Notes under the pieces: generated by a model
Seen by the model: only the letters and a program-made list of their open reading frames with translations
Databases searched by the model: none
Told to the model about the DNA's origin: nothing
Source: Myxococcota bacterium
GTDB taxonomy: Bacteria; Myxococcota_A; Bradymonadia; UBA7976; UBA1532
NCBI GenBank assembly: GCA_018813065.1
Contig: JAHJCH010000010.1
Location: 1-37,005 of the forward strand
DNA: 37,005 nucleotides
Direction: 5' to 3'
Shown: positions 3,580-15,495 of the stretch, in pieces
How the letters are laid out: each line of letters begins with the position of its first letter
How positions within the stretch are numbered: position 1 is the first letter of the stretch
Made by a program: the position numbers and the translations under genes

Positions 3580-4299
3580 ATGCGCAACCTCCTCCTTATC
3601 CTCTACGCCCTCCACGGCCTCGCCTACGCCAGCGCGCCTTCGCCCGCTGGGGACGCGCCACCCCGACGTGAGGTGGAGGTGGGCGTGACGCTGGTCGGGC
3701 GCGTGGTCGGCAGCTTCCTCACCGAGCCCAGCGATAAGACCTTTGAGCGCAACGGCGCGCGCTATCTGATGCCCTACCCCGGCTTCGGCGGCGTCAGCGG
3801 CGGCGGCGGCCTCTCCCTCCAGGCCATGTGGCGCGGCTTCGTCGGCCTTGATTGGGGCTTGATCTATCAGCTGGATCAGGGCAGCGGGGAGATCAACAAC
3901 ATCGACATCACGCTCAAGCAGACCGCTCTGCATATGCCGCTCTATCTGCGGCTTGAGGCGCCGCTGGAGAGCGTGCGCCCCTTCGCCTTCTTCGGCCCAG
4001 TGTGGATCTTCCCCGGCGAGCCGGAGGTGGACGCCGAGGCCACCTCGCCAACCTTTAAGGGCTACGCCGAGGATTACATGGCTTGGGGGTTTGGCTTCGG
4101 CTTCTCCTTCATCATCCCCGTCGAGGGCGTGGACGTGCGCGTCCCGCTGCGCTTCGCTGGCGCCTATAACCCCAACGTGAGCGATGACATCTCAGGCCGT
4201 ATGCGTGATCTGGAGCCCAACACCACTCAGTACACCTATGTCACCGAGTGGTCTTGGCACGCGACGGCCTCGCTGGGCCTCGCTTGGTACTTCTTGTAA
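3580..4299 (+). CDS. Outer-membrane beta-barrel candidate
   Basis: The 239-residue product starts with a signal peptide (MRN, hydrophobic core, likely cleavage after AYASA). The mature part is rich in alternating hydrophobic and aromatic strands with glycines. Examples are a glycine-rich turn near residue 70 (GGVSGGGGLSL), LYLRLEAP, FAFFGPVWIF, MAWGFGFGFSFII and a last strand SLGLAWYFL at the C-terminus. This is the pattern of OmpA/OprF-like or porin-family small barrels. No specific family was recognised, and the assignment rests on composition and periodicity. A weak AGGA-type ribosome binding site precedes the ATG. It sits about 65 bases after a plus-strand terminator and converges with the rhodanese-like gene across 5 bases. 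Confidence 0.65.
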   Translation: MRNLLLILYALHGLAYASAPSPAGDAPPRREVEVGVTLVGRVVGSFLTEPSDKTFERNGARYLMPYPGFGGVSGGGGLSLQAMWRGFVGLDWGLIYQLDQGSGEINNIDITLKQTALHMPLYLRLEAPLESVRPFAFFGPVWIFPGEPEVDAEATSPTFKGYAEDYMAWGFGFGFSFIIPVEGVDVRVPLRFAGAYNPNVSDDISGRMRDLEPNTTQYTYVTEWSWHATASLGLAWYFL

Positions 4300-4304
4300 G
4301 GGGA

Positions 4305-5024
4305 TCAGCCGCAGCCGCCGGCCTTCTTGGCCGCCCCGCCGATCAGCTTGATCTTATGCTCGAAGTGGCGAGCGTGGGCGCCCTCGCCGTGGAGCGCGGG
4401 GGGGGCCGCCCATGGCTGCGTCGCCCCAAAGGCGCGCGCGAAGCGATGACGCGGGGTGTCCGCGCCCTCGACCCGCTTGGCTTGGGCGTTGAAGTGGGGA
4501 TGATGGCCATAGGCATGGCATGGGTTGAGGTGCAGGGTGTCCAGCAGCCAGACGCCTGGCTCATCCTTGGTCAACGCGCACAGCTCAGGGCGGAAGATGT
4601 CTAACCAGAGGTTGACGCCCCCCTCCATGATGTAGGCGTTCTTCTGCCCCTGAACCCACAGCCGCCGCCAAGCACGCTCGGCCTCGGCCTCGTCATTGGA
4701 CATGATCACCACGGCGGTGGCCTTGAGCGGGTAGCCCGCCGCCAGCGTCGAGGCCTCAACCCGACGAGCCCCGGCGAGGTGAAAGAGGTTGTAGTCGCTG
4801 GCTTGGCGGACATCGAGGAGGATCAGCTTCATGCGGTTATTGTGCATCGCCTCGTAGACCTCCCACGGGTCTACATGATGCGCGCGTGAAGCCAAGCGGG
4901 CGTCGAGATCCGGCGCGGCGGCTTGGAGCTGATCTGCGAGGGTGGGGTCGCCGATCAGCAGGATCGCCAGGGCGCCCAGCAGCATCGCCGCCGCCCCCAG
5001 CCGCTTGAGCTGCTTGTCGATCAT
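4305..5024 (-). CDS. Membrane-anchored rhodanese-like protein, no loop cysteine
   Basis: The 239-residue product has an N-terminal membrane anchor (residues ~8-25) and then a rhodanese-like fold: VDPWEVYEAM, LILLDVRQASDYNLFHLAGA (the family's 'lDVR...f..gHipGA') and GGVNLWL near 135-141. Active rhodaneses carry a cysteine at the start of the active-site loop ('vvyC..G.RS'). Here the equivalent is VVIMSNDEAEAERAW with no cysteine, so classical sulfurtransferase activity is unlikely. Other cysteines occur later (LCALTKD, NPCHAYGHHPHF and a C-terminal GGCG) along with a His-rich stretch, and could bind metal or sulfur. It is the last gene of the sulfur cluster. Its ATG overlaps the preceding stop (ATGA), with AAGGAG upstream, so it is translationally coupled. 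Confidence 0.75.
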   Translation of the reverse strand: MIDKQLKRLGAAAMLLGALAILLIGDPTLADQLQAAAPDLDARLASRAHHVDPWEVYEAMHNNRMKLILLDVRQASDYNLFHLAGARRVEASTLAAGYPLKATAVVIMSNDEAEAERAWRRLWVQGQKNAYIMEGGVNLWLDIFRPELCALTKDEPGVWLLDTLHLNPCHAYGHHPHFNAQAKRVEGADTPRHRFARAFGATQPWAAPPALHGEGAHARHFEHKIKLIGGAAKKAGGCG

Positions 5025-5638
5025 GGCTGCTCCTTGTCCGCGCGCTCCGCCTCGGCCAGCGCCTTGGCGCGGATGGGCCCGAAGTGAGCCTCGCTCTTCT
5101 CGGCGAGGAGGAATGAGCCCAAGGTGATGAGGACGATCCCCACCGCGATGACGCCCGTGCTGACACCAAGGGCGTCCATCAAGGTCACCCGCCCCATCGC
5201 CCCGCTCGTCTGGAAGAAGAGCAGGAAGCTCTGGGCGAGGTCATTAAAGATGAAGGTGCCAATCAGCATCCCACCGACGAAGAAGAAGCCGTCGATCTTG
5301 AGGGTCGCCACCGAGGTCAGGGAGGTGCCGGGGCAAAAGCCACCCACGATAAAGCCCGTGCCCAGGAGCAGGCCGCCGATGATCCCCGGCCAGATATAGG
5401 TCGGCGGCACCCACAGCGCGGCGTAGTCCACGTAGCCCAGCTGCACGCCGAGGAAGATGATGAGCATGGCCACGACGAGGGCGGTGAACATCACCTTGAG
5501 CACCCTCATCTCGCCGAGGTAGAACTGCGCGGCGATGCGCCGCGAGTCCGCGAAGCCGCTGCTCTCAAGCACGAAGCCAAAGGCCAGGCCGGTCAGCAGC
5601 GAAACCAGGGCGGAGTCGCCCAGATGAAGAGGCGCCAT
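5021..5638 (-). CDS. YeeE/YedE-family sulfur transporter, half-size (second)
   Basis: This 205-residue integral membrane protein has about five hydrophobic segments and the YeeE/YedE (sulf_transp) signature GGFCPGTSLTSVA near the middle, plus GLAFGFVLESSGF at the N-terminus. E. coli-type YeeE (TsuA) imports thiosulfate by passing it along conserved cysteines and is about 350 residues long. Here the two halves are separate genes, this being the one with the FCPG cysteine. The C-terminus is a charged cytoplasmic-looking tail rich in K, E and A. A strong GGAGGAGGGG precedes the ATG. It lies 12 bases after the other half and overlaps the rhodanese-like gene by ATGA. The exact substrate (thiosulfate, sulfide or another sulfur compound) is inferred. 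Confidence 0.85.
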   Translation of the reverse strand: MAPLHLGDSALVSLLTGLAFGFVLESSGFADSRRIAAQFYLGEMRVLKVMFTALVVAMLIIFLGVQLGYVDYAALWVPPTYIWPGIIGGLLLGTGFIVGGFCPGTSLTSVATLKIDGFFFVGGMLIGTFIFNDLAQSFLLFFQTSGAMGRVTLMDALGVSTGVIAVGIVLITLGSFLLAEKSEAHFGPIRAKALAEAERADKEQP

Positions 5639-5650
5639 CTCCCCTCCTCC

Positions 5651-6184
5651 TTAAATCCACAGCCGCCGCAGCGGGTAGGCCAAGATGTAGCCCATACCGA
5701 AGACGGCGATGATGAAGAGCCAAGAGCCCAAGGAGAGCGAGGCGCCGCCGGAGAGGGCCTGGCCCGAGGCGCAGCCCCGCGCCAAGCGCGCGGCGAAGCC
5801 CGTGATGATGCCACCCAAGAGCGCCAAGACCCAGCGCTGCTTGACCGTGATGCGCGGCCCTTTGCGCGTCTCCAGCTTCACACGCCCGCGCATCGCGCCA
5901 GAGAGGAAGCCGCCGATCAGGGCGCCCAGCGCCATCCAGACCATGCGGTGGTTGAGCGGGCTGGCGTCGCCGCCAACCCAAGCGGCGATCAGCGGGTTGC
6001 GCTCAGCGTAGCGAGGGGCGAAGAGATCGGTCAGGGCCGCGACGACGCGCGAGAGCCCACCTGAGCCGCCGAGGCCCTCCCCCGCCAAGATGAAGGCGCC
6101 GCCGAGGACAAGCCCGAGGAGCGCCCCGCCCACATAAGGGTTCCAGTAGACCTCAGGATCACGCTTGAGCCAGTTCAAGTTCAC
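5651..6184 (-). CDS. YeeE/YedE-family sulfur transporter, half-size (first)
   Basis: Start chosen at GTG 6184 (MNLNWLKRDP...). AGAGGAGG lies six bases upstream, and the start falls one base beyond the stop of the cytochrome b gene; the longer frame would run 55 bases into that gene. The 177-residue product has several membrane segments and the family motif ARLARGCASGQALSGG. This matches the YeeE/YedE 'GCtSGh' motif, with one cysteine that in the thiosulfate importer TsuA forms part of the sulfur relay. The region near residues 20-40 is a glycine-rich membrane segment. With the next gene it makes up a full two-half YeeE/YedE unit. It is the fourth gene of the sulfur cluster. Confidence 0.85.
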   Translation of the reverse strand: MNLNWLKRDPEVYWNPYVGGALLGLVLGGAFILAGEGLGGSGGLSRVVAALTDLFAPRYAERNPLIAAWVGGDASPLNHRMVWMALGALIGGFLSGAMRGRVKLETRKGPRITVKQRWVLALLGGIITGFAARLARGCASGQALSGGASLSLGSWLFIIAVFGMGYILAYPLRRLWI

Positions 6185-6185
6185 C

Positions 6186-6836
6186 TCAAGCCTCCTCTTT
6201 CTTATGCTGATGCTTCTCTTCGATGACCTCATAGCCAACGACCATCGTCATAACATGTTGCATGACAGTATCGCCTGTGGTCGTTAAATACATATGCATA
6301 ATGATAAATGTGAAGAAAATCCAAGCGGCGCCTGCATGAACCTCTAAAAGTACAGGCAATCCACCAATGGGTGTAATCCACGCAGAGAGTTCAGCTGCAA
6401 AGAAAATTAAAACACCTGAGATGACTTGAAGTGGCAAAAGAACATTAAGCAAAAACAAATAGCTCATTCTTTGGAGGAGATTTAGCCTCTTTTCTTCGCT
6501 TGGATGAAAAGGATGGACAGCGCCCTTGAAAATACCGTAACTGTAGTAAATTACTTGCTTAACAAGTCCATTTACGAGCCCACTTCGTTCGATCTTGTAC
6601 TGTTTTATCTGACCTGACGTAAAAAAGTAGAAGAGGGCGAGCAGCGCGTGGGCGAAGAGCAAGAACGCCAGCACGTTATGCACATAAATGCTGATCTCAA
6701 AGTTGAAGAAGCTCAGGGCTGATGGATAGCGGATCACGGCCCCTGTAAAGAGCAAACCAAAGATCAACGCCGCCTGCACCCAGTGCCAGAAGCGCTCTTG
6801 GGCGGAGTAGAGGAAGAGCTTGCGCGTCGTCATCAT
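6186..6836 (-). CDS. Cytochrome b561-type quinol oxidoreductase subunit
   Basis: This 216-residue protein has four membrane spans and fits the prokaryotic cytochrome b561 / Ni-Fe hydrogenase and thiosulfate reductase cytochrome b family. Candidate haem-ligand histidines are His18 (FWHWVQ), His53 (YVHNVL), His63 (FAHALL), His167 (EVHAGA) and His181 (IMHMYL), placed in the spans as the family expects. It most likely carries electrons between the quinone pool and the periplasmic multihaem cytochromes encoded immediately upstream. The ATG overlaps the stop of the heptahaem gene (ATGA). Its middle, about 6240-6610, is unusually AT-rich (24 of 60 G+C at 6241-6300), unlike both ends of the gene. Confidence 0.88.
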   Translation of the reverse strand: MMTTRKLFLYSAQERFWHWVQAALIFGLLFTGAVIRYPSALSFFNFEISIYVHNVLAFLLFAHALLALFYFFTSGQIKQYKIERSGLVNGLVKQVIYYSYGIFKGAVHPFHPSEEKRLNLLQRMSYLFLLNVLLPLQVISGVLIFFAAELSAWITPIGGLPVLLEVHAGAAWIFFTFIIMHMYLTTTGDTVMQHVMTMVVGYEVIEEKHQHKKEEA

Positions 6837-8746
6837 TTGCTCCGTTGGCGGCGCGCCGCGAGGAAGCGCAGCCCGCCATGACCGGTGACGCCGAGGAGGA
6901 CCCCCAGCAGGCTGAGGAGGCCGAGGAGATCAGCGTAAGGGGTGCTGTTATGACCAAGGATGTAGTGCCCCGCCTCGCGGGTGTCTGGCTTGAACACCAG
7001 CCGCCCCGCCTCGCCGACGATCTCGCCGTTGAGGCTGACGTTGGTGTCGCCGACGAGCCTCGCGGTGGCGCCAAAGGGGACATAGCTCGACAGCTCAAAG
7101 GGCCGCGTCAGGTGAGAGGACTCATCATGGCACGCCTCGCAGGACTTGAGCACGAACCGCCCAGCGGCGACGCCGTGATGCAGGCTGTAGGGTTGGATCT
7201 CACCGCTGATCTGAGGATCGGAGACGCCCACGGCGATAAGGCGGGCGCGGGCAGCGGCGACCTTGTCTGCGGTGTCCAAGCGCAGCTCTGCGCCCTTCAA
7301 CGCGCCGTCCCCATCTGTGTCTAGGGCCTTGATCAAGTCGGGGTGGTGGCGATCCCCGATGAGGAAGGCCGCCTTGAGATCCACCAGCCGCGCGGGCGTA
7401 TGCGTCGCCCCTGATCGCTCGATCCAGAACCAGCTGGTGATCAGGTTATGCGGCGCCAGCTTCTTGGGCGCGGTCGCCTCACCATCACGCGGCAGGATCA
7501 CCGGGTGAAAGCCCGTCACCAGCGCCGCGCGATCTTCACCATCACCCTCAAGCCCACGATAAGCCACGAGAGGTTGAGCTTGCGTATCGATCAAGGTCCA
7601 ATCTGTCTGTTGACGCGCAGGCGCATAGAGCTTGGGGATATGGCACGTCTCACAGAGCAGCGCCTGCATATGTCTTGACTTGTAGGGCAGCCAATCATGA
7701 ACCGCGTTGGCGTCATGGCAGCCTTCGCAGCGACGCATCGAGTGATCAAGGCTCTCCTCAATCGTACCTTGAGCAGAGTCACCCTTTGTAAAATTATGAT
7801 TTGGTCTGTGTAGGTACTGGCTCATGGTCAGGATACGTGCGTCATGCTTGAGATGGTCAGGCCTCGTCTCTGATCGTTCCGCGAACGCAGACGGATGATT
7901 GGCCGCATGATGGCATGATGTGCAGCTTAACATGCGCTCAGAGTGGACATCCCAAGGGCGACCGAGCTGTGTCTTCTCCTCAATGTTTATCTGAGAGCGT
8001 TTGATGCGTTGGGCTGAAAAGATCTGCCCTGTCGTCTCAGTCTCCCAATGCTCGATGCCCGTTGAGAGGGTGATTTCATCCTGGAGCCCCGCTACGGCGC
8101 CGTGGCAGAGGCCACAGTTCTTATCGCTGGGCGTTTGTAGGTTGAGCGCGCCGCGCTTGAGGTGACCGTCGGGCTCAAAGGCCGCAGGGTCATAGCGCCA
8201 GGGCCGGGCGGGATCATCGCTGGGGATGATAAACGCTGGCCGTGCGCCGCTGAGGGTCGCCGTGGCCGCCCAGGCCCCTTGACCGGCGCTGAGGGCGCGC
8301 AGGCGGGCCTCATGATCAGGATCGTTGACGTGACAGAGGAAGCAGTCGAGCTGCGCGCCGACGGCGGGGCCGCCGCCCACGTGTCGGGTGCCTTGGCGCG
8401 TCCAGGCCTCGGGCGTGAGATCCACGCGCGGATCGTCCTTGGGGCTCAAGCGCCGATAGGTCAGCGGATCCCAGCGCCCAAAGAGGCCTGGGCTTAAATC
8501 CCAAGGGCGCGCGCCTGGGTGAGTGGGCTCGCCCTGACCCGCCTGACTGTGGAAGTGATGGGCCTGGATATAGGCCGCGTCGTGGCAGCCATCGCAGGTC
8601 TTGAGCGTGTCAATGGGCGCGCCGGTCTGGACCACGGGCTGGCCCTGGGCGTCGAGGAGGCGCACCTGAGGGTGAAGCCGCTGGCCGCTGGCCGCGCTGA
8701 CGCAGGCCAAGGCGAGGCACAAGGTGAGGTTGAAGCGCGCGCTCAT
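6833..8746 (-). CDS. Heptahaem c-type cytochrome with EF-hand loop and membrane anchor
   Basis: Start chosen at ATG 8746, which has GAGAGGAG upstream and overlaps the preceding stop (ATGA). The product is 637 residues. A signal peptide precedes seven CxxCH haem-binding motifs at residues 51-55, 135-139, 211-215, 275-279, 340-344, 365-369 and 536-540. Between haems six and seven there is a canonical calcium-binding EF-hand loop at 476-487 (DTDGDGALKGAE). Near the C-terminus a hydrophobic stretch (~604-622) followed by a basic tail looks like a membrane anchor with the cytochrome on the periplasmic side. It probably relays electrons between the cytochrome b and the octahaem enzyme. It does not match a multihaem family I can name. 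Its own catalytic activity is unknown. Confidence 0.85.
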   Translation of the reverse strand: MSARFNLTLCLALACVSAASGQRLHPQVRLLDAQGQPVVQTGAPIDTLKTCDGCHDAAYIQAHHFHSQAGQGEPTHPGARPWDLSPGLFGRWDPLTYRRLSPKDDPRVDLTPEAWTRQGTRHVGGGPAVGAQLDCFLCHVNDPDHEARLRALSAGQGAWAATATLSGARPAFIIPSDDPARPWRYDPAAFEPDGHLKRGALNLQTPSDKNCGLCHGAVAGLQDEITLSTGIEHWETETTGQIFSAQRIKRSQINIEEKTQLGRPWDVHSERMLSCTSCHHAANHPSAFAERSETRPDHLKHDARILTMSQYLHRPNHNFTKGDSAQGTIEESLDHSMRRCEGCHDANAVHDWLPYKSRHMQALLCETCHIPKLYAPARQQTDWTLIDTQAQPLVAYRGLEGDGEDRAALVTGFHPVILPRDGEATAPKKLAPHNLITSWFWIERSGATHTPARLVDLKAAFLIGDRHHPDLIKALDTDGDGALKGAELRLDTADKVAAARARLIAVGVSDPQISGEIQPYSLHHGVAAGRFVLKSCEACHDESSHLTRPFELSSYVPFGATARLVGDTNVSLNGEIVGEAGRLVFKPDTREAGHYILGHNSTPYADLLGLLSLLGVLLGVTGHGGLRFLAARRQRSK

Positions 8747-10365
8747 CGTCGCCACTCCTCTCGGGTCCAACCCTCATACTGATCGATCAGATTCATCTGT
8801 AAGCGCCCACCCTGCCGCGCGGGATCGCCTTCATAGCCCAAGGCTTTCCAATCCAAACGCCCTGCTTGACCATTCTCGGTGTGGCAATCATTGCACTGCA
8901 ACGCCTCATCGGCGGAGGCGACCATATGTGTTTGGGGCCAGAACATCTCTGTCTCAAGCCAACCGAAGGTGTGTTGATCTGTCTCTGAGCCGCGATACTT
9001 TAAACCATGCTCTGCTGCGCCGTTTTTAAATGAAATGTGCCAACGTGTTTGAATGTCATGTTTTTGTACCTCAGTCATACCCCAGAAGCCATCTTCACCA
9101 TAAGTCTTAGGCACAAGCAAGTGTTTGTAATAAGTATCGTAAGGTTGCTTCCCGCGATGAACCTTAAAGGGGAAGATTCGCGCGTTCGGATCGCGAACAT
9201 CGCCTAATGGGTAATTTATTGAGAGCAATTTTGTTGGATCATCAATTTTATCACCTGTAATATGCCTATTAGCATGGCCATTATACCAGTAATATTCTGG
9301 CTCTACATCAGAAGCATATTTAAACACACCTTTAATGGGGTTATAGTCATGTGGATCGGTAAGCCCAAACTTTTTCATCGCGGCTTCTTGAGTCATACCG
9401 GCCTCTGACCAGTCCCACCACATTTTTGTGGCAGCGCCCTTGGCGAAGGTCGGGATATGGCAAGTCTGACAGGCTACGGTGTGTGTATGCGCGTTTAAAC
9501 GATCTTGTTGATGTGGCTGCTCACTGTGACAATCAGTGCAGCGCACTAAATTTTTTGGATCAAAAGAGACGCCCATTGAGCGACCTTTAATCTCGTGGTT
9601 TTCAGTACGATGGCAATCAACACAGTTCAGATTATGACGGCCCATATGAATATCAATATTTTCACTCGGATTATACATAAATCCGTTAAGATCACCATGT
9701 TTAACAGCATCACCACCACCGCCAGCGAAGTGGCATGTCCCACAGTTATCTCTTGAGGGAAAATTTACTGATTTTGCAAAGTTTAGCATATAATCAACTT
9801 TGTAGTTTGGATGATCGCCTTCTGGTTTTTTAGGCTCCTCTGGATAACCAGAATCACCGCTTGGCTTAACATATGTGCCTGTGGATTCATGGCAAACCAG
9901 GCAATCAATGTTTTTTTCATCTTCAAAGTTAAAATTAGCGTCTTCCCAGCCATAACCGATATGACAACTCGTACAACGAGGCCAATTTGATTGGACTGAT
10001 ATACAAAAATTGTTGATCAGATTTGCCTTGCCAACCCGAACTTTCTCCTCTTTGCCTGGAACGCTCATCGCCTCACCACGCCAGTGCCAATGAGAGGTCG
10101 CCATGACGGATTCAGCGGCGTCAGGGTGACAGTCGAGGCACTTCTGAGTGAGGCGATGGGCGATCTGCTTTACGTCATCACGGACGTCAGCGAAGTCCTC
10201 AGCGTTAAAGAACTGACGATGATCCACATGCTCGGAGCGCTGTGGGAGCGCGGCGCGTGGATCGTCCTTTTGGGCTTCACGAGGGGGTGGCTCTCCGGCC
10301 ATCAGGACCCCGATCACCACCAGGCTGGCAGGGACCAGCGCTGGAAAGATGATGGAAACCTTCAT
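8743..10365 (-). CDS. otr: Octahaem tetrathionate reductase-type cytochrome
   Basis: The 540-residue secreted protein has eight CxxCH motifs at residues 76-80, 131-135, 155-159, 208-212, 248-252, 276-280, 299-303 and 491-495. Number, spacing and phrases such as RCTSCHIGYGW and NIDCLVCHE match the octahaem tetrathionate reductase (OTR) family described from Shewanella. That enzyme reduces tetrathionate in vitro, and also nitrite and hydroxylamine, through one haem with a lysine ligand. Lys151, just before the third motif, is a candidate for that ligand, but this is inference. The N-terminus (residues 1-23) is a signal peptide or anchor. It is the first gene of the sulfur cluster. The middle of the gene (about 9030-10030) is strikingly AT-rich (20 of 60 G+C at 9241-9300), while both ends are GC-rich. 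Confidence 0.85.
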   Translation of the reverse strand: MKVSIIFPALVPASLVVIGVLMAGEPPPREAQKDDPRAALPQRSEHVDHRQFFNAEDFADVRDDVKQIAHRLTQKCLDCHPDAAESVMATSHWHWRGEAMSVPGKEEKVRVGKANLINNFCISVQSNWPRCTSCHIGYGWEDANFNFEDEKNIDCLVCHESTGTYVKPSGDSGYPEEPKKPEGDHPNYKVDYMLNFAKSVNFPSRDNCGTCHFAGGGGDAVKHGDLNGFMYNPSENIDIHMGRHNLNCVDCHRTENHEIKGRSMGVSFDPKNLVRCTDCHSEQPHQQDRLNAHTHTVACQTCHIPTFAKGAATKMWWDWSEAGMTQEAAMKKFGLTDPHDYNPIKGVFKYASDVEPEYYWYNGHANRHITGDKIDDPTKLLSINYPLGDVRDPNARIFPFKVHRGKQPYDTYYKHLLVPKTYGEDGFWGMTEVQKHDIQTRWHISFKNGAAEHGLKYRGSETDQHTFGWLETEMFWPQTHMVASADEALQCNDCHTENGQAGRLDWKALGYEGDPARQGGRLQMNLIDQYEGWTREEWRR

Positions 10366-10725: not shown

Positions 10726-11427
10726 CTATGCCTCTTCGTCTGCTTTGCGGATCTGCTCGCGGACATAGCGCGCGACGACCGCTGCGGCGACGCAGTTGAG
10801 CGTAAGGTTGCGTAGGAGCTTGCGGTTGATGGTCTTGCCGTCGTTGTAGAGCTCTAGATCGCCGAGGTAGAGCAAGGTCGCCGCTTCGCGCTCAACGAGC
10901 CCTGGGATTTGATCCTCAGGGTAGCCCTCCGGCAGCGCCTCGGCGAAGCCCTCCAAGCAGGCCTCCAGGGGCAACGGGTGACGCTCCACGGTCATCAAGG
11001 CGCCAGTGTGATAGAAGCGCAGGCGCAGCGGCTCCTTGGAGAGCTTCTCGATCCGGGTCGAGACGCGCGTGCTTTGGCTGAAGCTGAGGTAGAGCGCAGG
11101 GCGCAGCGGCTCAGAGCTCTTCGTCAACGCTCGGCAGATGTACACCACCAGCTCAGGCAGCCCTGAGGGTTGACGGTGAACGCGGACCATGGCGGTGAAG
11201 CGCCGAGGGTAGACGTTGAAGGGCTCAATCAAGCCCGAGAAGGGCTCAAAGGTGAAAGAGAGCCAGGGGACAAGGGCTGGCTTCTTACCCACACCGATGG
11301 GGCGATAGATGCTTTGGATGTCCTTGATCTCTTGGATGAGCGCGTGGGCGTCACCCTCCGCGAAGAGCGCCTCAAGGTCATCCTCCAGCACCTCTCGAAC
11401 CCGCTCGCTGACATCTCGTAGGCGCAT
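10726..11427 (-). CDS. Unrecognised 233-residue protein
   Basis: Start chosen at ATG 11427 (MRLRDVSERV...), since GAGGAGG lies about four bases upstream; a TTG one codon earlier is less likely. No signal peptide or membrane segment is visible, so the protein is probably cytoplasmic. The N-terminus is helical and acidic (VREVLEDDLEALFAEGDAHAL). It is followed by mixed strands and helices, with motifs such as PRRFTAMVRVHRQ and RIEKLSKEPLRLRFYHTG, and a basic C-terminal helix (LNCVAAAVVARYVREQIRK). No family or catalytic motif was recognised. It lies upstream of the sulfur cluster on the same strand, but a 360-base gap makes co-transcription doubtful. It is divergent from the 5'-nucleotidase pair. 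Confidence 0.7.
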   Translation of the reverse strand: MRLRDVSERVREVLEDDLEALFAEGDAHALIQEIKDIQSIYRPIGVGKKPALVPWLSFTFEPFSGLIEPFNVYPRRFTAMVRVHRQPSGLPELVVYICRALTKSSEPLRPALYLSFSQSTRVSTRIEKLSKEPLRLRFYHTGALMTVERHPLPLEACLEGFAEALPEGYPEDQIPGLVEREAATLLYLGDLELYNDGKTINRKLLRNLTLNCVAAAVVARYVREQIRKADEEA

Positions 11428-11563
11428 CAATCCTCCTCATCACCACCGTTCCAGGCGCCGCGCGCTCGCGTAGCGTCGCGCCGCAGCGATTCTCCGCTGA
11501 GGCCGTCCAGAGATACAGAGCCCGGCGTGGATCGTCAATCTATCGGAGGTCAGATTTCCTGAT

Positions 11564-12325
11564 ATGATGCCCCCTATGCGAAGCAAATTACTCCATTTTT
11601 CGGCCACCTTCCGGCTCCTCCTCGCGGCGCTCATCTTCACGCAAGGCCCCCTCAATCCTGCATCAGCGGCGCCCCCGATCCCGGTCAATGAGGTCGTCAA
11701 AGGCGCTGAAGACGTCGAGGCAATCGTCGCGATCTATAAACGACAGCTCGGCGCGCGGCTCTCGGCGCCCCTCGCCACGGCCACCACGGATCTCAGCTCA
11801 GAGGGGGCACCCTCCAGCCCGCTGGGGCTCATCGTCGCCGAAGGGGTCCTCCGTCAAGCGCAGCGCTTGGCGCCCAAGACCCAGATCTTTATGACCAACG
11901 ACGGCGGCCTGCGCGTCAGCCTCAGCCAAGGGACCATCACCCTGGCCCACGTCTATGAGCTGATGCCCTTTGATAATGAGGTGGTCCTCCTCACCGTCTC
12001 CGGGGCGGTCCTCGCCGACATCTGCGACGCCATCGCCCTCAAGCGCGGGGAGCCAGTGGCGGGCCTCTCCGCCACGCTCGATCCTCAGGCGGGGCGCGCG
12101 ACGGACGTGCGGATCGGCGGCGCGCCCCTCGATCCGCAGGGCGTCTATCACTTGGCGACCTCGGATTACTTGGTGGAGGCGGGGTGGATGCGCGACGCCG
12201 TGAAGGGGATCGCCGTGGAGCGCACAGGGCTCCTCCTGCGCGACGCCATCGCCGCCGCCTTTAAGGCCCACGTCGGCCCCCTGACCCCCCCCGCCACGCA
12301 GCCCTTTAAGTGGAGCGCCCCATGA
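11564..12325 (+). CDS. 5'-nucleotidase C-terminal domain as a separate secreted protein
   Basis: The 253-residue product has a signal peptide (hydrophobic core ~17-27, cleavage likely after ASA near 36) and then a domain matching the C-terminal, nucleotide-binding part of UshA-type 5'-nucleotidases. The family's 'NgGgiR' appears as TNDGGLRVSL, and its 'fPFdN.vv...ltG..l...le' as YELMPFDNEVVLLTVSGAVLADICDAI. The 'GGDGy' near the end of the domain is not preserved (SDYLVEAGWM). The ATGs at 11564, 11567 and 11576 are all possible starts; GGAGG lies at 11545-11549. The metallophosphatase half is the next gene, overlapping by ATGA, so the enzyme is split and the domain order reversed. The pair probably acts in the periplasm on nucleotides or related phosphoesters. 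Confidence 0.8.
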   Translation: MMPPMRSKLLHFSATFRLLLAALIFTQGPLNPASAAPPIPVNEVVKGAEDVEAIVAIYKRQLGARLSAPLATATTDLSSEGAPSSPLGLIVAEGVLRQAQRLAPKTQIFMTNDGGLRVSLSQGTITLAHVYELMPFDNEVVLLTVSGAVLADICDAIALKRGEPVAGLSATLDPQAGRATDVRIGGAPLDPQGVYHLATSDYLVEAGWMRDAVKGIAVERTGLLLRDAIAAAFKAHVGPLTPPATQPFKWSAP

Positions 12326-13209
12326 GCCTTGATCGCCGCGATGTCCTCAAGCTGCTGGGCGGCGCCGCCGCCTTGAGCGCCACCCCCGCCCTGGCCGCGC
12401 CCGCCGCCGCCGAGGTGACGATCCTCCACACCAACGACACCCACGCCCGCTTAGAGCCCTTTGAGGGAGGGCGCTACGCGGGCTTGGGGGGGATCGCCCG
12501 GCGCGCCGCCCTCATCCGCCAGATCCGCGCAGCCCGCCCCGCCACCCTGGTGGTGGACGCCGGCGACACCTTCCAAGGCACGCCCTACTTCAATCAGTTC
12601 GGCGGGGTGGCGGAGCTGCGCACGATGAGCGCCGCAGGCTATGACGTGGTGACCTTGGGCAACCACGACTTTGACGCTGGGGTGGATGCCCTTTTGCGGG
12701 CCATGGCCTACGCGCGCTTCAGCTTCACCAACAGCAACTTCATCATCACCCGCCCGGAGCTGGCGGCGCGGGTTCAGCCTGAGATCTTGCGGCGGGTCGG
12801 GGGGCGTTGGATCGGCCTCTTTGGCTTGGGCGTCTCCTTCGAGGGCCTCGTCTCGCCCAAGCATCACCTCGGGCTGCGCTACACCGATCCCCTCGTCGCC
12901 GCCCGCCGCAGCGTGGCGCGGCTGCGCGCCCAGGGCGCTGAGGCGATCATCTGCCTCTCTCACTTAGGCATCGAGGGCTATCAAGGTGAGCCGGGCGATG
13001 TTCACGTCGCCGATCAGGTGGAGGGCGTCGATCTGATCGTCGGCGGCCACAGCCACACATTCCTAGAGGCCCCTCGCCGCGTAAAGCAGACGGCGATCGT
13101 GCAGGTGGGTCACTCGGGGACGCACCTGGGGCAGGTCACGCTGCGCTTCACCCCCCAAGGCGTAGAGGTCGCAGGCGAGGCCCTGCCCGTCGCTGAGCGC
13201 TGGGCCTGA
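12322..13209 (+). CDS. 5'-nucleotidase-type metallophosphatase with Tat signal
   Basis: Start chosen at ATG 12322, which overlaps the previous stop (ATGA); an upstream in-frame codon is less likely. The 296-residue product begins with a twin-arginine signal (DRRDVLKLLGG) and an AxA cleavage region. It then carries the calcineurin-like metal-binding motifs of 5'-nucleotidases in order: LHTNDTHARLEP, VVDAGDTFQGT, TLGNHDFDAG, ICLSHLG and VGGHSHTF. It lacks the C-terminal domain found in UshA, which the previous gene supplies. It would bind two metal ions and hydrolyse phosphoesters such as nucleotides in the periplasm. The Tat signal suggests folding and metal loading before export. Confidence 0.88.
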   Translation: MSLDRRDVLKLLGGAAALSATPALAAPAAAEVTILHTNDTHARLEPFEGGRYAGLGGIARRAALIRQIRAARPATLVVDAGDTFQGTPYFNQFGGVAELRTMSAAGYDVVTLGNHDFDAGVDALLRAMAYARFSFTNSNFIITRPELAARVQPEILRRVGGRWIGLFGLGVSFEGLVSPKHHLGLRYTDPLVAARRSVARLRAQGAEAIICLSHLGIEGYQGEPGDVHVADQVEGVDLIVGGHSHTFLEAPRRVKQTAIVQVGHSGTHLGQVTLRFTPQGVEVAGEALPVAERWA

Positions 13210-13215
13210 ATGAAC

Positions 13216-13247
13216 CCGCGCTTCGGCGCGTCTCGGCGCGTTTTTTT
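13216..13247 (+). terminator. Intrinsic terminator after the split 5'-nucleotidase
   Basis: CGCGC-TTCG-GCGCG (13217-13230) is followed by a second CGCG-containing segment that can pair alternatively, and then by seven T residues (13241-13247). It begins a few bases after the stop codon at 13209. Confidence 0.75.
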
Positions 13248-13262
13248 GGCACACCTTATGCT
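13246..13262 (+). promoter_or_regulatory. Candidate sigma-54 promoter
   Basis: TTGGCAC followed by CATGCT-like bases (TTGGCACACCTTATGCT, 13246-13262) matches the -24/-12 consensus: TGGCAC is intact and the GG and GC dinucleotides have the required spacing. The -12 box is ATGC instead of TTGC. It lies 38 bases upstream of the ATG at 13300 and directly after the terminator, the right place for the beta-propeller lipoprotein gene. No enhancer site was identified. Confidence 0.45.
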
Positions 13263-13299
13263 CGACAGGGCTTCGTGCTTTAAACGAGGTCCAAAGTTC

Positions 13300-15495
13300 A
13301 TGAAAATCGGCAGCTTGACGCTCAAAAATCCACGCCGCTGGCCTCAGATTACGGCGGCGATCCTCACCCTCAGCTTGGCGGCCTGCGCTGACACCGACGA
13401 TGACCGTGGCCCCAGCGATCCCTTCGCGGAGAAGACCGTCGGCTTGACCGCCTTTGAGTCCTGCCAGCCCCTCCTCGATTACATGCAGCGTGAGGCCATC
13501 GAGCGCGTGGAGCGCGGCGAGTGGGGCGGCTACTACGGCGTGCGCGGCGGCGCTGAGATCGATCTGACTGAAGCCGCCCCCTCAGCCGATGATGCCAGCG
13601 GCGGCGGTCAGAGCGCGGCGCACTCCGAGACGAACAATCAAGAGGCCGGCGTCGATGAGCCCGACATGGTCAAGACCGACGGCGAGTTCATCTACCTGCT
13701 CCACGCGGGCAGCGTGTTTATCTATCGCGCCGAGGACTTGACCCTGGAGAGTGAGACGCCCGTGGGCCAAGGCAACGCCTCTAGCCTGCTGGTGGATGAA
13801 GATCAGCTCTTGGTCTTTGAGCACCTCTGGGGTGGAGACGCGGCTTTCCCCGAGGCGACGCGGCTCCAAGATCGTGCATCCACGGCCATGAGCCTGTTTG
13901 ATATCTCTGATCGCGGCGCCCCGACGTTGCAGCGTCGGCTGATCGTTGAGGGTAATTTTATCTCCGCTCGCCTCGTGGGCCGCGTCGTGCGCGCGGTCAT
14001 CAGCAGCGACAACACGCCTAATCTCACCCCCGCCTATGAAGCCGCCTATGCCCAAGAGCGCCAAGATTACGGTGAGCCCCCCATGGCCCAAGGCGGCGCG
14101 GGCGGCGCGATGGGCACAGAGCCCGGGCAGGCCACCGAGGTTGAGCCTCAAGAGGCGCCCGCGCCCAGCCCCGCTCCGGTCGAGACCCGCCGCAGCGCCC
14201 TGACCTCTGAGGAGATCTTGATCGCTGAGGCCACCCGCATCATCCGCGCCTCCACCCTCGAAGACTGGATCCCCTATGCCTATGATCTCGTCGGCGAGGA
14301 GCGCACCTCTGGCCAGCTCTCCAGCTGCGGTCACTTCTATCGCCCCGGCGAGCGCGGCGGCTTGGGCGTCACCAGCGTCATCACCCTCGATCTGGATCAG
14401 CCCACCGCGCGCTTCGATGATCCCGCCATCATCGCCGAGGGCGCCACCGTCTACGCCAGCGCCACGGGCCTCTATGTGACGACGCATAACTGGCATGACT
14501 TCCGCCCAATCGCCATGACCGGCGTGGCCATCGGCGGCGATGTGGCCGTCAGCGCGCCCGCCAGCGAGCCCGCCACGGGCACCGCGACCCGCGAGGCGGC
14601 CCTGGAGGCCGATGAGCAGCGCCAGGCGACTCAAATCCACCGCTTTGACATCAGCCGCAGCGCCGCCGCCGCGCGCTACACGGGCTCAGGCCGCGTCTTT
14701 GGCACTGTCCTCAATCAATTCAGCCTCGGCGAGCACGAGGGCCACCTGCGCGTCGCCACCACCGAGCAGCGCTATGAGCTCGAGTGGCGCCGCGTCAACC
14801 ATGTCTTCGTGTTGGGTCAAGGCGGCGAGCATGGCTTGGAGGTCAAGGGCACCGTGACCGACATCGCCGAAGGGGAGTCGATCTACGCCGTGCGCTTCCT
14901 CGGCGATCGTGGCTTCATCGTCACCTTCTTACAGGTGGACCCGCTCTTCACCCTCGATCTGAGCAACCCCAGCGCGCCTCGCCTCGTCGGCGAGCTGAAG
15001 ATCCCTGGCTTCTCGACCTACCTCCACCCCGTCGATGATGACTTCATCTTGGGGATCGGTCAGGCAGGGGATGAGTCAGGCTTGACCGGCGGGATGCAGC
15101 TGAGCCTCTTCGATGTCTCTGACTTCGCCGATCCCAAGCTGGCCGACACCCAAGACCTCGGCCAAGATGGCTGGAGCCCCGCTGGCTACGATCATCACGC
15201 CTTCTTGTATTGGGCGCCCGAGGCGCTCTTGGCCATCCCCGTCAGCGGTTGGGATCAGCGCGACGGCGGCTATACCTCCAGCTTGGATCTCTTCAGCCTG
15301 GACACCGCCAACGGCTTCGGCGCGCGTGGCAGCGTCGATCACGCAGATCTCAACAATGACTATGAGGGGCAAATCCAGCGCAGCCTCATCATCGGCGACG
15401 CCCTGTACTCCATCAGCATGGCGGGGCTTAAGAGCCACGCGCTGTCCGATCTCAGCCCTCGCGCCGCCGCGCGCCTGCCCGCTCGGGGCTACTGA
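13300..15495 (+). CDS. Beta-propeller domain lipoprotein
   Basis: Start chosen at ATG 13300, with ACGAGG upstream. An in-frame ATG at 13210 would run through the terminator and the candidate promoter. The 731-residue product has a signal peptide ending in LAAC, so it is a likely lipoprotein. The segment SETNNQEAGVDEPDMVKTDG with the following FIYLLHAGSVFIY is the hallmark of the secreted 'beta propeller' family (Beta_propel, DUF-type proteins of about 600-750 residues). Propeller-type repeats follow (GASLFDISD-like phrases such as TLDLSNPSAPRLVGEL and LFDVSDFADPKL). An Ala/Pro-rich linker lies near residues 265-300. The role is unknown; the family is extracytoplasmic. Confidence 0.85.
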   Translation: MKIGSLTLKNPRRWPQITAAILTLSLAACADTDDDRGPSDPFAEKTVGLTAFESCQPLLDYMQREAIERVERGEWGGYYGVRGGAEIDLTEAAPSADDASGGGQSAAHSETNNQEAGVDEPDMVKTDGEFIYLLHAGSVFIYRAEDLTLESETPVGQGNASSLLVDEDQLLVFEHLWGGDAAFPEATRLQDRASTAMSLFDISDRGAPTLQRRLIVEGNFISARLVGRVVRAVISSDNTPNLTPAYEAAYAQERQDYGEPPMAQGGAGGAMGTEPGQATEVEPQEAPAPSPAPVETRRSALTSEEILIAEATRIIRASTLEDWIPYAYDLVGEERTSGQLSSCGHFYRPGERGGLGVTSVITLDLDQPTARFDDPAIIAEGATVYASATGLYVTTHNWHDFRPIAMTGVAIGGDVAVSAPASEPATGTATREAALEADEQRQATQIHRFDISRSAAAARYTGSGRVFGTVLNQFSLGEHEGHLRVATTEQRYELEWRRVNHVFVLGQGGEHGLEVKGTVTDIAEGESIYAVRFLGDRGFIVTFLQVDPLFTLDLSNPSAPRLVGELKIPGFSTYLHPVDDDFILGIGQAGDESGLTGGMQLSLFDVSDFADPKLADTQDLGQDGWSPAGYDHHAFLYWAPEALLAIPVSGWDQRDGGYTSSLDLFSLDTANGFGARGSVDHADLNNDYEGQIQRSLIIGDALYSISMAGLKSHALSDLSPRAAARLPARGY

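What the first reader, a model, noticed from the sequence alone, without database searches (positions are those of the whole stretch)
4305..10365. Six-gene tetrathionate/sulfur-oxyanion respiration and uptake cluster
Five of the genes are joined by overlaps of one to four bases or gaps of 12 bases or less. In order: octahaem tetrathionate reductase-type cytochrome, membrane-anchored heptahaem cytochrome, cytochrome b561, both halves of a YeeE/YedE transporter and a rhodanese-like protein. This would link the quinone pool to periplasmic reduction of a sulfur oxyanion and to import or retention of the sulfur product (thiosulfate) in one unit. The combination is not one I can match to a named system. 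The catalytic role of the heptahaem protein and the transporter substrate are inference.
Basis: partly seen in the sequence, partly recalled or inferred. Interest (0 to 1): 0.75.

Follow-up and report, generated by a model that had tools for sequence, protein, structure and literature searches.

The report
Haem reductase wired to sulfur pore
Six adjacent genes, kept in the same order in distantly related bacteria, encode an eight-haem enzyme, its likely electron supply line and a two-part pore of a sulfur-transport family whose attached domain ends in a cysteine, and together they would reduce a sulfur compound outside the inner membrane and probably hand the product to the pore.

Summary
In detail: six minus-strand genes (10365-4305) with junctions of -4, -4, +1, +12 and -4 bases. 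Order and strand are the same in 80 of 80 relatives' loci kept; 67 hold all six modules and 13 are cut by contig ends. C7-b561 and YeeE-half-rhodanese are mostly fused genes. In one sampled class (that of an Anaerolineales genome), 32 of 33 genomes with the heptahaem protein also have the octahaem enzyme. The 'rhodanese' has no catalytic Cys but ends in a conserved GGC[G/S], reminiscent of SoxY. In some relatives in-frame TGA stands at the Cys codon of OTR (Cys64-equivalent), of the YeeE half (Cys91-equivalent) or of the tail, which suggests selenocysteine and hence catalytic thiols. Best reading: a quinol-linked reductase coupled to a cysteine arm and a split YeeE pore. Substrate and direction are inferred. 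I found no description of this unit in the papers whose passages I opened; most listed papers were seen as listings only.

The parts
8743..10365 (-). OTR-type octahaem cytochrome c with N-terminal signal/anchor (residues 5-23)
   Evidence: 8 CxxCH; TIGR04315 522.4 bits over cut-off 375; 1SP3 E 2.7e-125; hydropathy
10003..10005 (-). Codon of Cys121, equivalent of residue 64 of 1SP3 (active-site Cys); TGA in one relative (L170)
   Evidence: Alignment; Cys in 73 of 73 unit OTRs kept; TGA at this place in L170
9700..9702 (-). Codon of Lys222, equivalent of Lys153, ligand of catalytic haem 2
   Evidence: Alignment; Lys in 73 of 73 unit OTRs kept
6833..8746 (-). C7: heptahaem OTR-fold protein with C-terminal TM; lacks haem 2, Lys and active-site Cys
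6186..6836 (-). Cytochrome b561-type membrane protein, four TM by hydropathy, likely two b haems
   Evidence: PF01292 73.8 bits; His18, 53, 108, 167 in 81 of 81 and His181 in 80 of 81
5651..6184 (-). YeeE C-terminal half (PmpA-like), Cys138 = Cys293-type (GCASG)
   Evidence: PF04143 profile 167-306; Cys in 76 of 76 aligned
5021..5638 (-). YeeE N-terminal half (PmpB-like), Cys102 = Cys91-type (GGFCPG)
   Evidence: PF04143 profile 11-153; Cys in 69 of 70 aligned, one gap; TGA at this place in L063, L069, L091, L104
4305..5024 (-). Rhodanese-fold protein without catalytic Cys, N-terminal anchor (6-24), predicted periplasmic; fused to the YeeE N-half in most relatives
   Evidence: PF00581 36.6 bits; Foldseek rhodanese matches, best E 4.0e-4, on the fused relative; fused in 66 of 71 loci
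4689..4703 (-). MSNDE loop at the place of the rhodanese Cys loop
   Evidence: S109 in 54, N110 in 56, E112 in 56 of 56 aligned; no Cys
4308..4319 (-). C-terminal GGCG with Cys238 as the last residue but one
   Evidence: GGC near the C-terminus in 75 of 84 untruncated relatives; four more have GLC, four have TGA at the Cys, one is interrupted by TAG before a GGCG end

Best explanation
The six genes form a conserved unit that most likely encodes one inner-membrane complex in which electrons from quinol would pass through cytochrome b561 and the heptahaem protein to the octahaem enzyme, which is predicted to cleave a sulfur-sulfur bond of a periplasmic sulfur compound such as tetrathionate, while a cysteine at the tip of the rhodanese-fold domain likely carries the sulfur product to a two-part YeeE pore for import. 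Shown by sequence: the parts, their conserved order, the fusions, absence of the catalytic haem in the heptahaem protein, absence of the rhodanese Cys, conservation of the reactive cysteines and their replacement by in-frame TGA in some relatives. Inferred: complex formation, electron direction, substrate, the cysteine relay, import. Proposed cycle: the tail Cys accepts or presents a sulfane or thiosulfonate group; OTR (haem 2, Lys ligand, neighbouring Cys) reduces it; the thiosulfate or sulfane then meets the pore cysteines (Cys293-type, then Cys91-type).
Against: No activity, expression or structure of any member was seen. OTR of Shewanella also reduces nitrite and hydroxylamine (PMC11024163 passage), so sulfur chemistry is not proven by family. 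The MSNDE loop is acidic, unfavourable for an anion in the usual rhodanese pocket. No TusA/TsuB-like partner was found among the nine window proteins scanned, although TsuB is essential for TsuA uptake in E. coli. The third YeeE cysteine (Cys22-type) is absent: the window N-half has one Cys only. Two genomes of the class sample have OTR without C7 and one has a C7 fragment without OTR over cut-off; 11 of 24 OTR genomes of the own phylum lack C7. SelB does not separate TGA genomes from others (20 of 23 have it over cut-off; two of the five TGA genomes tested have only matches below it). tRNA-Sec is borderline in G286. SECIS-like hairpins did not stand out for the YeeE or OTR sites. Two of 73 unit OTRs show seven CxxCH.
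Confidence: 0.45

Rival explanations
1. Same complex run in the oxidative direction: OTR would couple thiosulfate, sulfite or sulfide oxidatively to the tail Cys (as SoxXA does with SoxY), pass electrons to quinone through C7-b561, and the sulfane sulfur would be imported through YeeE.
For: GGC tail resembles SoxY GGCGG, whose Cys has an established sulfur-binding role (PMC6067878 passage); SoxXA-SoxYZ-SoxT logic (PMC11582611 passages); import makes most sense if the sulfur is used further in the cytoplasm.
Against: MmcA haems lie at about -100 to -450 mV and those of Shewanella OTR were described as similar, low for taking electrons from thiosulfate (tetrathionate couple about +198 mV as quoted in PMC8528874). 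The only neighbour recurring in more than nine of 92 loci is an ArsR regulator; Sox, Dsr or Hdr genes were not searched for by family.
Confidence: 0.25
2. Nitrogen reductase: the OTR reduces nitrite or hydroxylamine, and the YeeE-rhodanese genes protect or supply it without taking part in catalysis.
For: Shewanella OTR reduces nitrite and hydroxylamine (passage); a Lys-ligated haem is also found in NrfA (PMC7096707 passage).
Against: YeeE halves and the rhodanese domain are in every one of the 80 units with room for them and persist in the short variant that lacks C7-b561; TGA at the OTR Cys, the pore Cys and the tail Cys points to thiol chemistry.
Confidence: 0.1
3. Selenium or tellurium oxyanion handling: the pore moves a selenium species and OTR reduces it.
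For: Weak YeeE-half matches to selenium YedE models (NF033796 42 bits, cut-off 350; TIGR04112 about 20 bits, cut-off 200); some members are predicted selenoproteins.
Against: Scores are far below cut-off; selenoprotein status reflects catalysis, not cargo; most units use Cys.
Confidence: 0.07
4. Sulfur acquisition only: a thiosulfate uptake system for assimilation, with OTR merely converting tetrathionate to the transportable form.
For: Split YeeE with both key cysteines.
Against: A quinone-linked b561 and 15 c haems are costly for assimilation; no neighbour other than an ArsR regulator recurs in more than nine of 92 loci, though assimilation genes were not searched for by family.
Confidence: 0.1

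Closest known systems
Octahaem tetrathionate reductase (OTR, TIGR04315; Shewanella oneidensis 1SP3)
   Same: Eight haems, Lys ligand and active-site Cys conserved; score over cut-off
   Different: Falls in a separate clade tied to C7-b561, a split YeeE and a rhodanese-fold arm; activity untested
MmcA of Methanosarcina (TIGR04314), an electron conduit
   Same: OTR-related heptahaem protein without haem 2 and Lys (PMC11024163 passages; here)
   Different: C7 scores 32.8 bits against a cut-off of 250, has a C-terminal TM and is mostly fused to b561
CbcL of Geobacter (PMC9129911 passages)
   Same: Multihaem c domain joined to a b-type membrane domain as quinone oxidoreductase
   Different: CbcL has nine c haems; C7 has seven and the OTR fold. 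A nonahaem gene with a weak b561 match stands in place of C7-b561 in two short variants
PmpAB / TsuA (YeeE) / SoxT transporters
   Same: PF04143, split halves with Cys91-type and Cys293-type residues as described for PmpB and PmpA (PMC11582611 passage)
   Different: C-half gene first; N-half mostly fused to a rhodanese-fold domain with GGC tail; no TusA-like partner among the proteins scanned; no third Cys
SoxYZ carrier with SoxXA
   Same: C-terminal glycine-flanked Cys next to a haem enzyme that could load or unload it
   Different: Carrier is a rhodanese-fold domain tethered to the permease; motif GGC[GS] at the very end, not GGCGG, in most; no SoxY domain found
YTD cluster of sulfur disproportionators (PMC8528874 passage)
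   Same: YedE-type permease with a rhodanese-type protein
   Different: YTD has TusA and DsrE-like proteins; no cytochrome is named in that passage

Membership tests
OTR family (TIGR04315) | Score over curated cut-off and eight CxxCH | tested here: met
   522.4 bits against 375; 8 motifs
OTR family (TIGR04315) | Lys ligand of haem 2 | tested here: met
   Lys222 aligned to Lys153; 73 of 73
OTR family (TIGR04315) | Tetrathionate reductase activity | not testable with these tools
   Needs enzyme assay
PF04143 YeeE/YedE, split PmpAB type | Two halves with Cys91-type and Cys293-type residues | tested here: met
   Profile ranges 11-153 and 167-306; Cys conserved 69 of 70 (one gap) and 76 of 76
TsuA thiosulfate transporter (NF052577, NF041049) | Score over cut-off; third Cys; TsuB partner | tested here: not met
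   31.5 bits against 400 and 11.8 against 645; one Cys in the N-half; no TusA-like among nine window proteins scanned
Rhodanese sulfurtransferase | Rhodanese fold | tested here: met
   PF00581 36.6 bits, cut-off 22.2; Foldseek matches for the fused relative
Rhodanese sulfurtransferase | Catalytic Cys in the active loop | tested here: not met
   No Cys at loop positions in 56 aligned
SoxY | C-terminal GGCGG | tested here: not met
   Window protein ends GGCG
SoxY | SoxY domain | tested here: not met
   Pfam scan gives Rhodanese as the only match over cut-off
PhsC thiosulfate reductase cytochrome b (NF011582) | Score over cut-off | tested here: not met
   124.8 bits against 204
MmcA (TIGR04314) | Score over cut-off | tested here: not met
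   32.8 bits against 250
CbcL | Nine c haems plus six-TM b domain | tested here: not met
   C7 has seven CxxCH; b561 four TM by hydropathy
Selenoprotein variants of the unit (relatives) | In-frame TGA at Cys codon with Sec machinery in the genome | tested here: met
   Nine TGA sites; tRNA-Sec 65-75 bits in five of six genomes, borderline 47.1 in the sixth, G286; SelB over cut-off in three of the five TGA genomes tested, only matches below cut-off in the other two; G462 not tested for SelB
Selenoprotein variants of the unit (relatives) | SECIS hairpin after the TGA | tested here: inconclusive
   Three of four tail sites fold strongly; YeeE and OTR sites do not stand out from Cys sites

The most novel reading that the evidence does not exclude
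A new kind of respiratory complex: a multihaem reductase works not on a free oxyanion but on a sulfur group held by a cysteine (or selenocysteine) arm that is built into the transporter itself, so that quinol-driven sulfur chemistry and membrane transfer of the sulfur are one coupled machine with chemically linked thiols.
Probability: 0.3. Interest if true: 0.9.

Novelty: new variant of a known kind. Interest (0 to 1): 0.72.

Why it matters
[quoted passage not shown] This unit gives a large, conserved OTR branch a fixed electron supply, a fixed permease and a reactive-thiol map, so its substrate becomes directly testable. In the sampled class of G288 (Anaerolineales genome), 32 of 34 genomes with an over-cut-off OTR also hold C7, so counts of 'tetrathionate reductase' genes there probably count this system. 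A haem reductase coupled to a permease through a tethered cysteine arm would be a new design.

Tried and rejected
Heptahaem protein as second enzyme: its mass per haem (9.9 kDa) falls in the range that PMC7096707 calls catalytic (over 7 kDa, passages), but the fold comparison and haem mapping show no catalytic haem, so I rejected it as the main reading. Sequence search of C7 against solved structures gave chance matches only; the OTR relation came from the predicted model and the profile comparison. N-terminal profile alignment alone could not decide which haem is missing; three full alignments agreed. SECIS folding and SelB tally did not discriminate. Foldseek on the fused YeeE-rhodanese model (pLDDT 86.5) shows rhodanese matches at the top and no YeeE chain in the 50 rows shown; this absence means nothing. 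The Lys153/Cys64 keyword search found no papers. YTD-like sulfur disproportionation was set aside because no TusA or DsrE family was among the nine window proteins scanned; relatives' neighbours were clustered but not scanned by family, except the ArsR gene and the nonahaem genes. The window's phylum is not named by any tool; I do not name it.

Dropped rows and limits: the locus scan kept the best 80 of 351 relatives, so order counts are for close relatives. Unit OTR frames of 420 residues or fewer were left out (73 kept, the window's among them). The tree used 45 of 86 unit OTRs, one second OTR of L064 counted as other. The rhodanese alignment kept 56 rows with at least 80% length and 70 bits. 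The genome searches scored a limited number of first-look candidates per genome (4 to 8), so their counts are lower bounds.
Full report
Observation. The window holds six minus-strand genes between 10365 and 4305. Junctions are -4, -4, +1, +12 and -4 bases. Family assignments are OTR (TIGR04315, 522 bits, cut-off 375; PF11783), a seven-CxxCH protein without a family over cut-off (here C7), cytochrome b561 (PF01292), two PF04143 halves (the first gene is the C-terminal half, the second the N-terminal half) and a rhodanese domain (PF00581). The nearest same-strand frame upstream that I scanned (10726-11430, no family found) is 360 bases away; the downstream gene (3580-4299) is convergent.

Conservation. 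A search with a 29-row alignment of C7 homologues found 351 relatives in species-representative genomes, of which the best 80 were kept: Chloroflexota, Planctomycetota, KSB1, Deltaproteobacteria and one Lysobacterales by record title. All 80 keep order and strand; 67 have all six modules and the other 13 run off a contig end. C7 and b561 are one protein in 71 of 80; the YeeE N-half and the rhodanese domain are one protein in 66 of 71, and of the other five, four are split only by an in-frame TGA. Of the 12 relatives' C7 loci fetched there, ten show all six modules, one is cut by a contig end, and one (L161) has OTR fused to C7 and no b561 hit. In the class of G288 (genome of L036, titled Anaerolineales bacterium; 199 genomes) the numbers are 34, 33 and 32. 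These are lower bounds, as only 4 to 8 candidates per genome were scored. Unit and short-variant OTRs fall in one clade, SH-aLRT 98, apart from the Shewanella enzyme and 11 other OTRs, in a quick tree. Four short variants (OTR, YeeE halves, rhodanese, no C7-b561; three of them nearly identical) lie inside the clade. Downstream of the three that I looked at is a nonahaem gene; two of these match b561 weakly, 26 and 27 bits against a cut-off of 30.

OTR. The window enzyme aligns to 1SP3 at E 2.7e-125. A Lys (153 in 1SP3, here 222) and a Cys (64 in 1SP3, here 121) are conserved in 73 of 73 unit OTRs and in eight of eight others; two of the 73 show seven CxxCH rather than eight. That the second haem is catalytic and Lys-ligated is from PMC11024163 (passages); that Lys153 is that ligand and that Cys64 lies by that haem is recalled.

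Permease and arm. Both YeeE halves keep their key cysteine, equivalents of the Cys91 and Cys293 that PMC11582611 describes for PmpB and PmpA (passage). The third Cys of TsuA is absent. The rhodanese domain is predicted to be periplasmic: its N-terminal hydrophobic segment (6-24) has three K/R (residues 4, 7, 8) at its start and none in the 15 residues after it; this is an inference. Its active loop reads S-N-D-E in most, without Cys in 56 aligned. Its C-terminus holds GGC followed by at most four residues in 75 of 84 untruncated relatives; of the other nine, four have GLC, four have TGA in place of the Cys codon and one is interrupted by TAG before a GGCG end. SoxY's C-terminal GGCGG Cys has an established sulfur-binding role (PMC6067878 passage).

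Selenocysteine. Among 96 loci scanned, TGA inside module matches occurs at the YeeE N-half Cys (L063, L069, L091, L104), at the tail Cys (L039, L063, L069, L104) and otherwise only at gene ends. Another type of OTR (L170, followed by b561) has a single TGA at the Cys64 equivalent. tRNA-Sec is found at 65-75 bits in five of the six genomes concerned and at 73.5 in the window's own genome; the sixth (G286) has a borderline 47.1, a score also reached by second-best matches elsewhere. SelB is over cut-off in 20 of 23 genomes, including three of the five TGA genomes tested; the other two have only matches below cut-off, so this is consistent but not discriminating. A 2026 review table lists selenoprotein forms of YeeE/YedE and, as GenBank-annotated, of TIGR04315 (PMC13188914, passages); in those passages no gene neighbourhood is drawn.

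Regulation. An ArsR-family gene is found in 46 of 92 loci; 45 of its 48 copies lie upstream on the same strand and 45 of 48 share one Cys. The frame upstream in the window matched no such family.

Interpretation. The parts, fusions and module swap fit a quinol-linked reductase whose product or intermediate is handled by a cysteine arm on a split YeeE pore. Direction and substrate are not shown. Reduction is favoured because MmcA haems lie at -100 to -450 mV with OTR in a similar range, while the tetrathionate couple is about +198 mV (quoted in PMC8528874), and because an OTR transcript responded to tetrathionate there (36-fold at day 8, p = 0.0488; 1.8-fold at day 1, not significant). That OTR's neighbourhood was not examined here.

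Novelty. Full-text searches listed up to 40 papers each. I opened passages of 14 papers; none of those passages described OTR with C7-b561 and YeeE halves as one unit. The other listed papers were seen as listings only, and most subscription papers are not in the library, so a description elsewhere is not excluded.

Noticed in passing
L027 and L028 (window's own genome, contigs C79 and C244): Two further OTRs: a long one (811-aa frame) with no YeeE-half hit in the stretch fetched, and one followed by b561 without C7, YeeE or rhodanese genes. Three OTR architectures in one genome.
   Followed up: partly
L170:6191: OTR followed by b561 in a genome (G462) that also has a full unit (L176); its Cys64-equivalent codon is TGA.
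   Followed up: partly
L165:10443-12380, L021:6485-8584: Nonahaem cytochrome with a weak b561 match downstream of the short variant, apparently in place of C7-b561 (CbcL-like).
   Followed up: partly
L036:6965-7300 and 45 other loci: ArsR-family regulator next to the unit with one conserved Cys; possible sulfur-responsive repressor.
   Followed up: partly
L029, L030, L031 (own genome): Three more loci with PF04143 halves elsewhere in the genome; no OTR hit in the stretches fetched.
   Followed up: no
own genome G000:C219:18558-18651: tRNA-Sec match at 73.5 bits, so the window's organism probably uses selenocysteine, though this unit has Cys.
   Followed up: no
L107:7649 and L085:7998: In-frame TAG in the OTR frame of L107 and in the rhodanese frame of L085; perhaps assembly errors or decay.
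   Followed up: no
window 12310-15495: Plus-strand pair that reads like a 5'-nucleotidase/metallophosphatase (my reading of the translation, no family scan) and a large secreted protein, unrelated to the unit.
   Followed up: no
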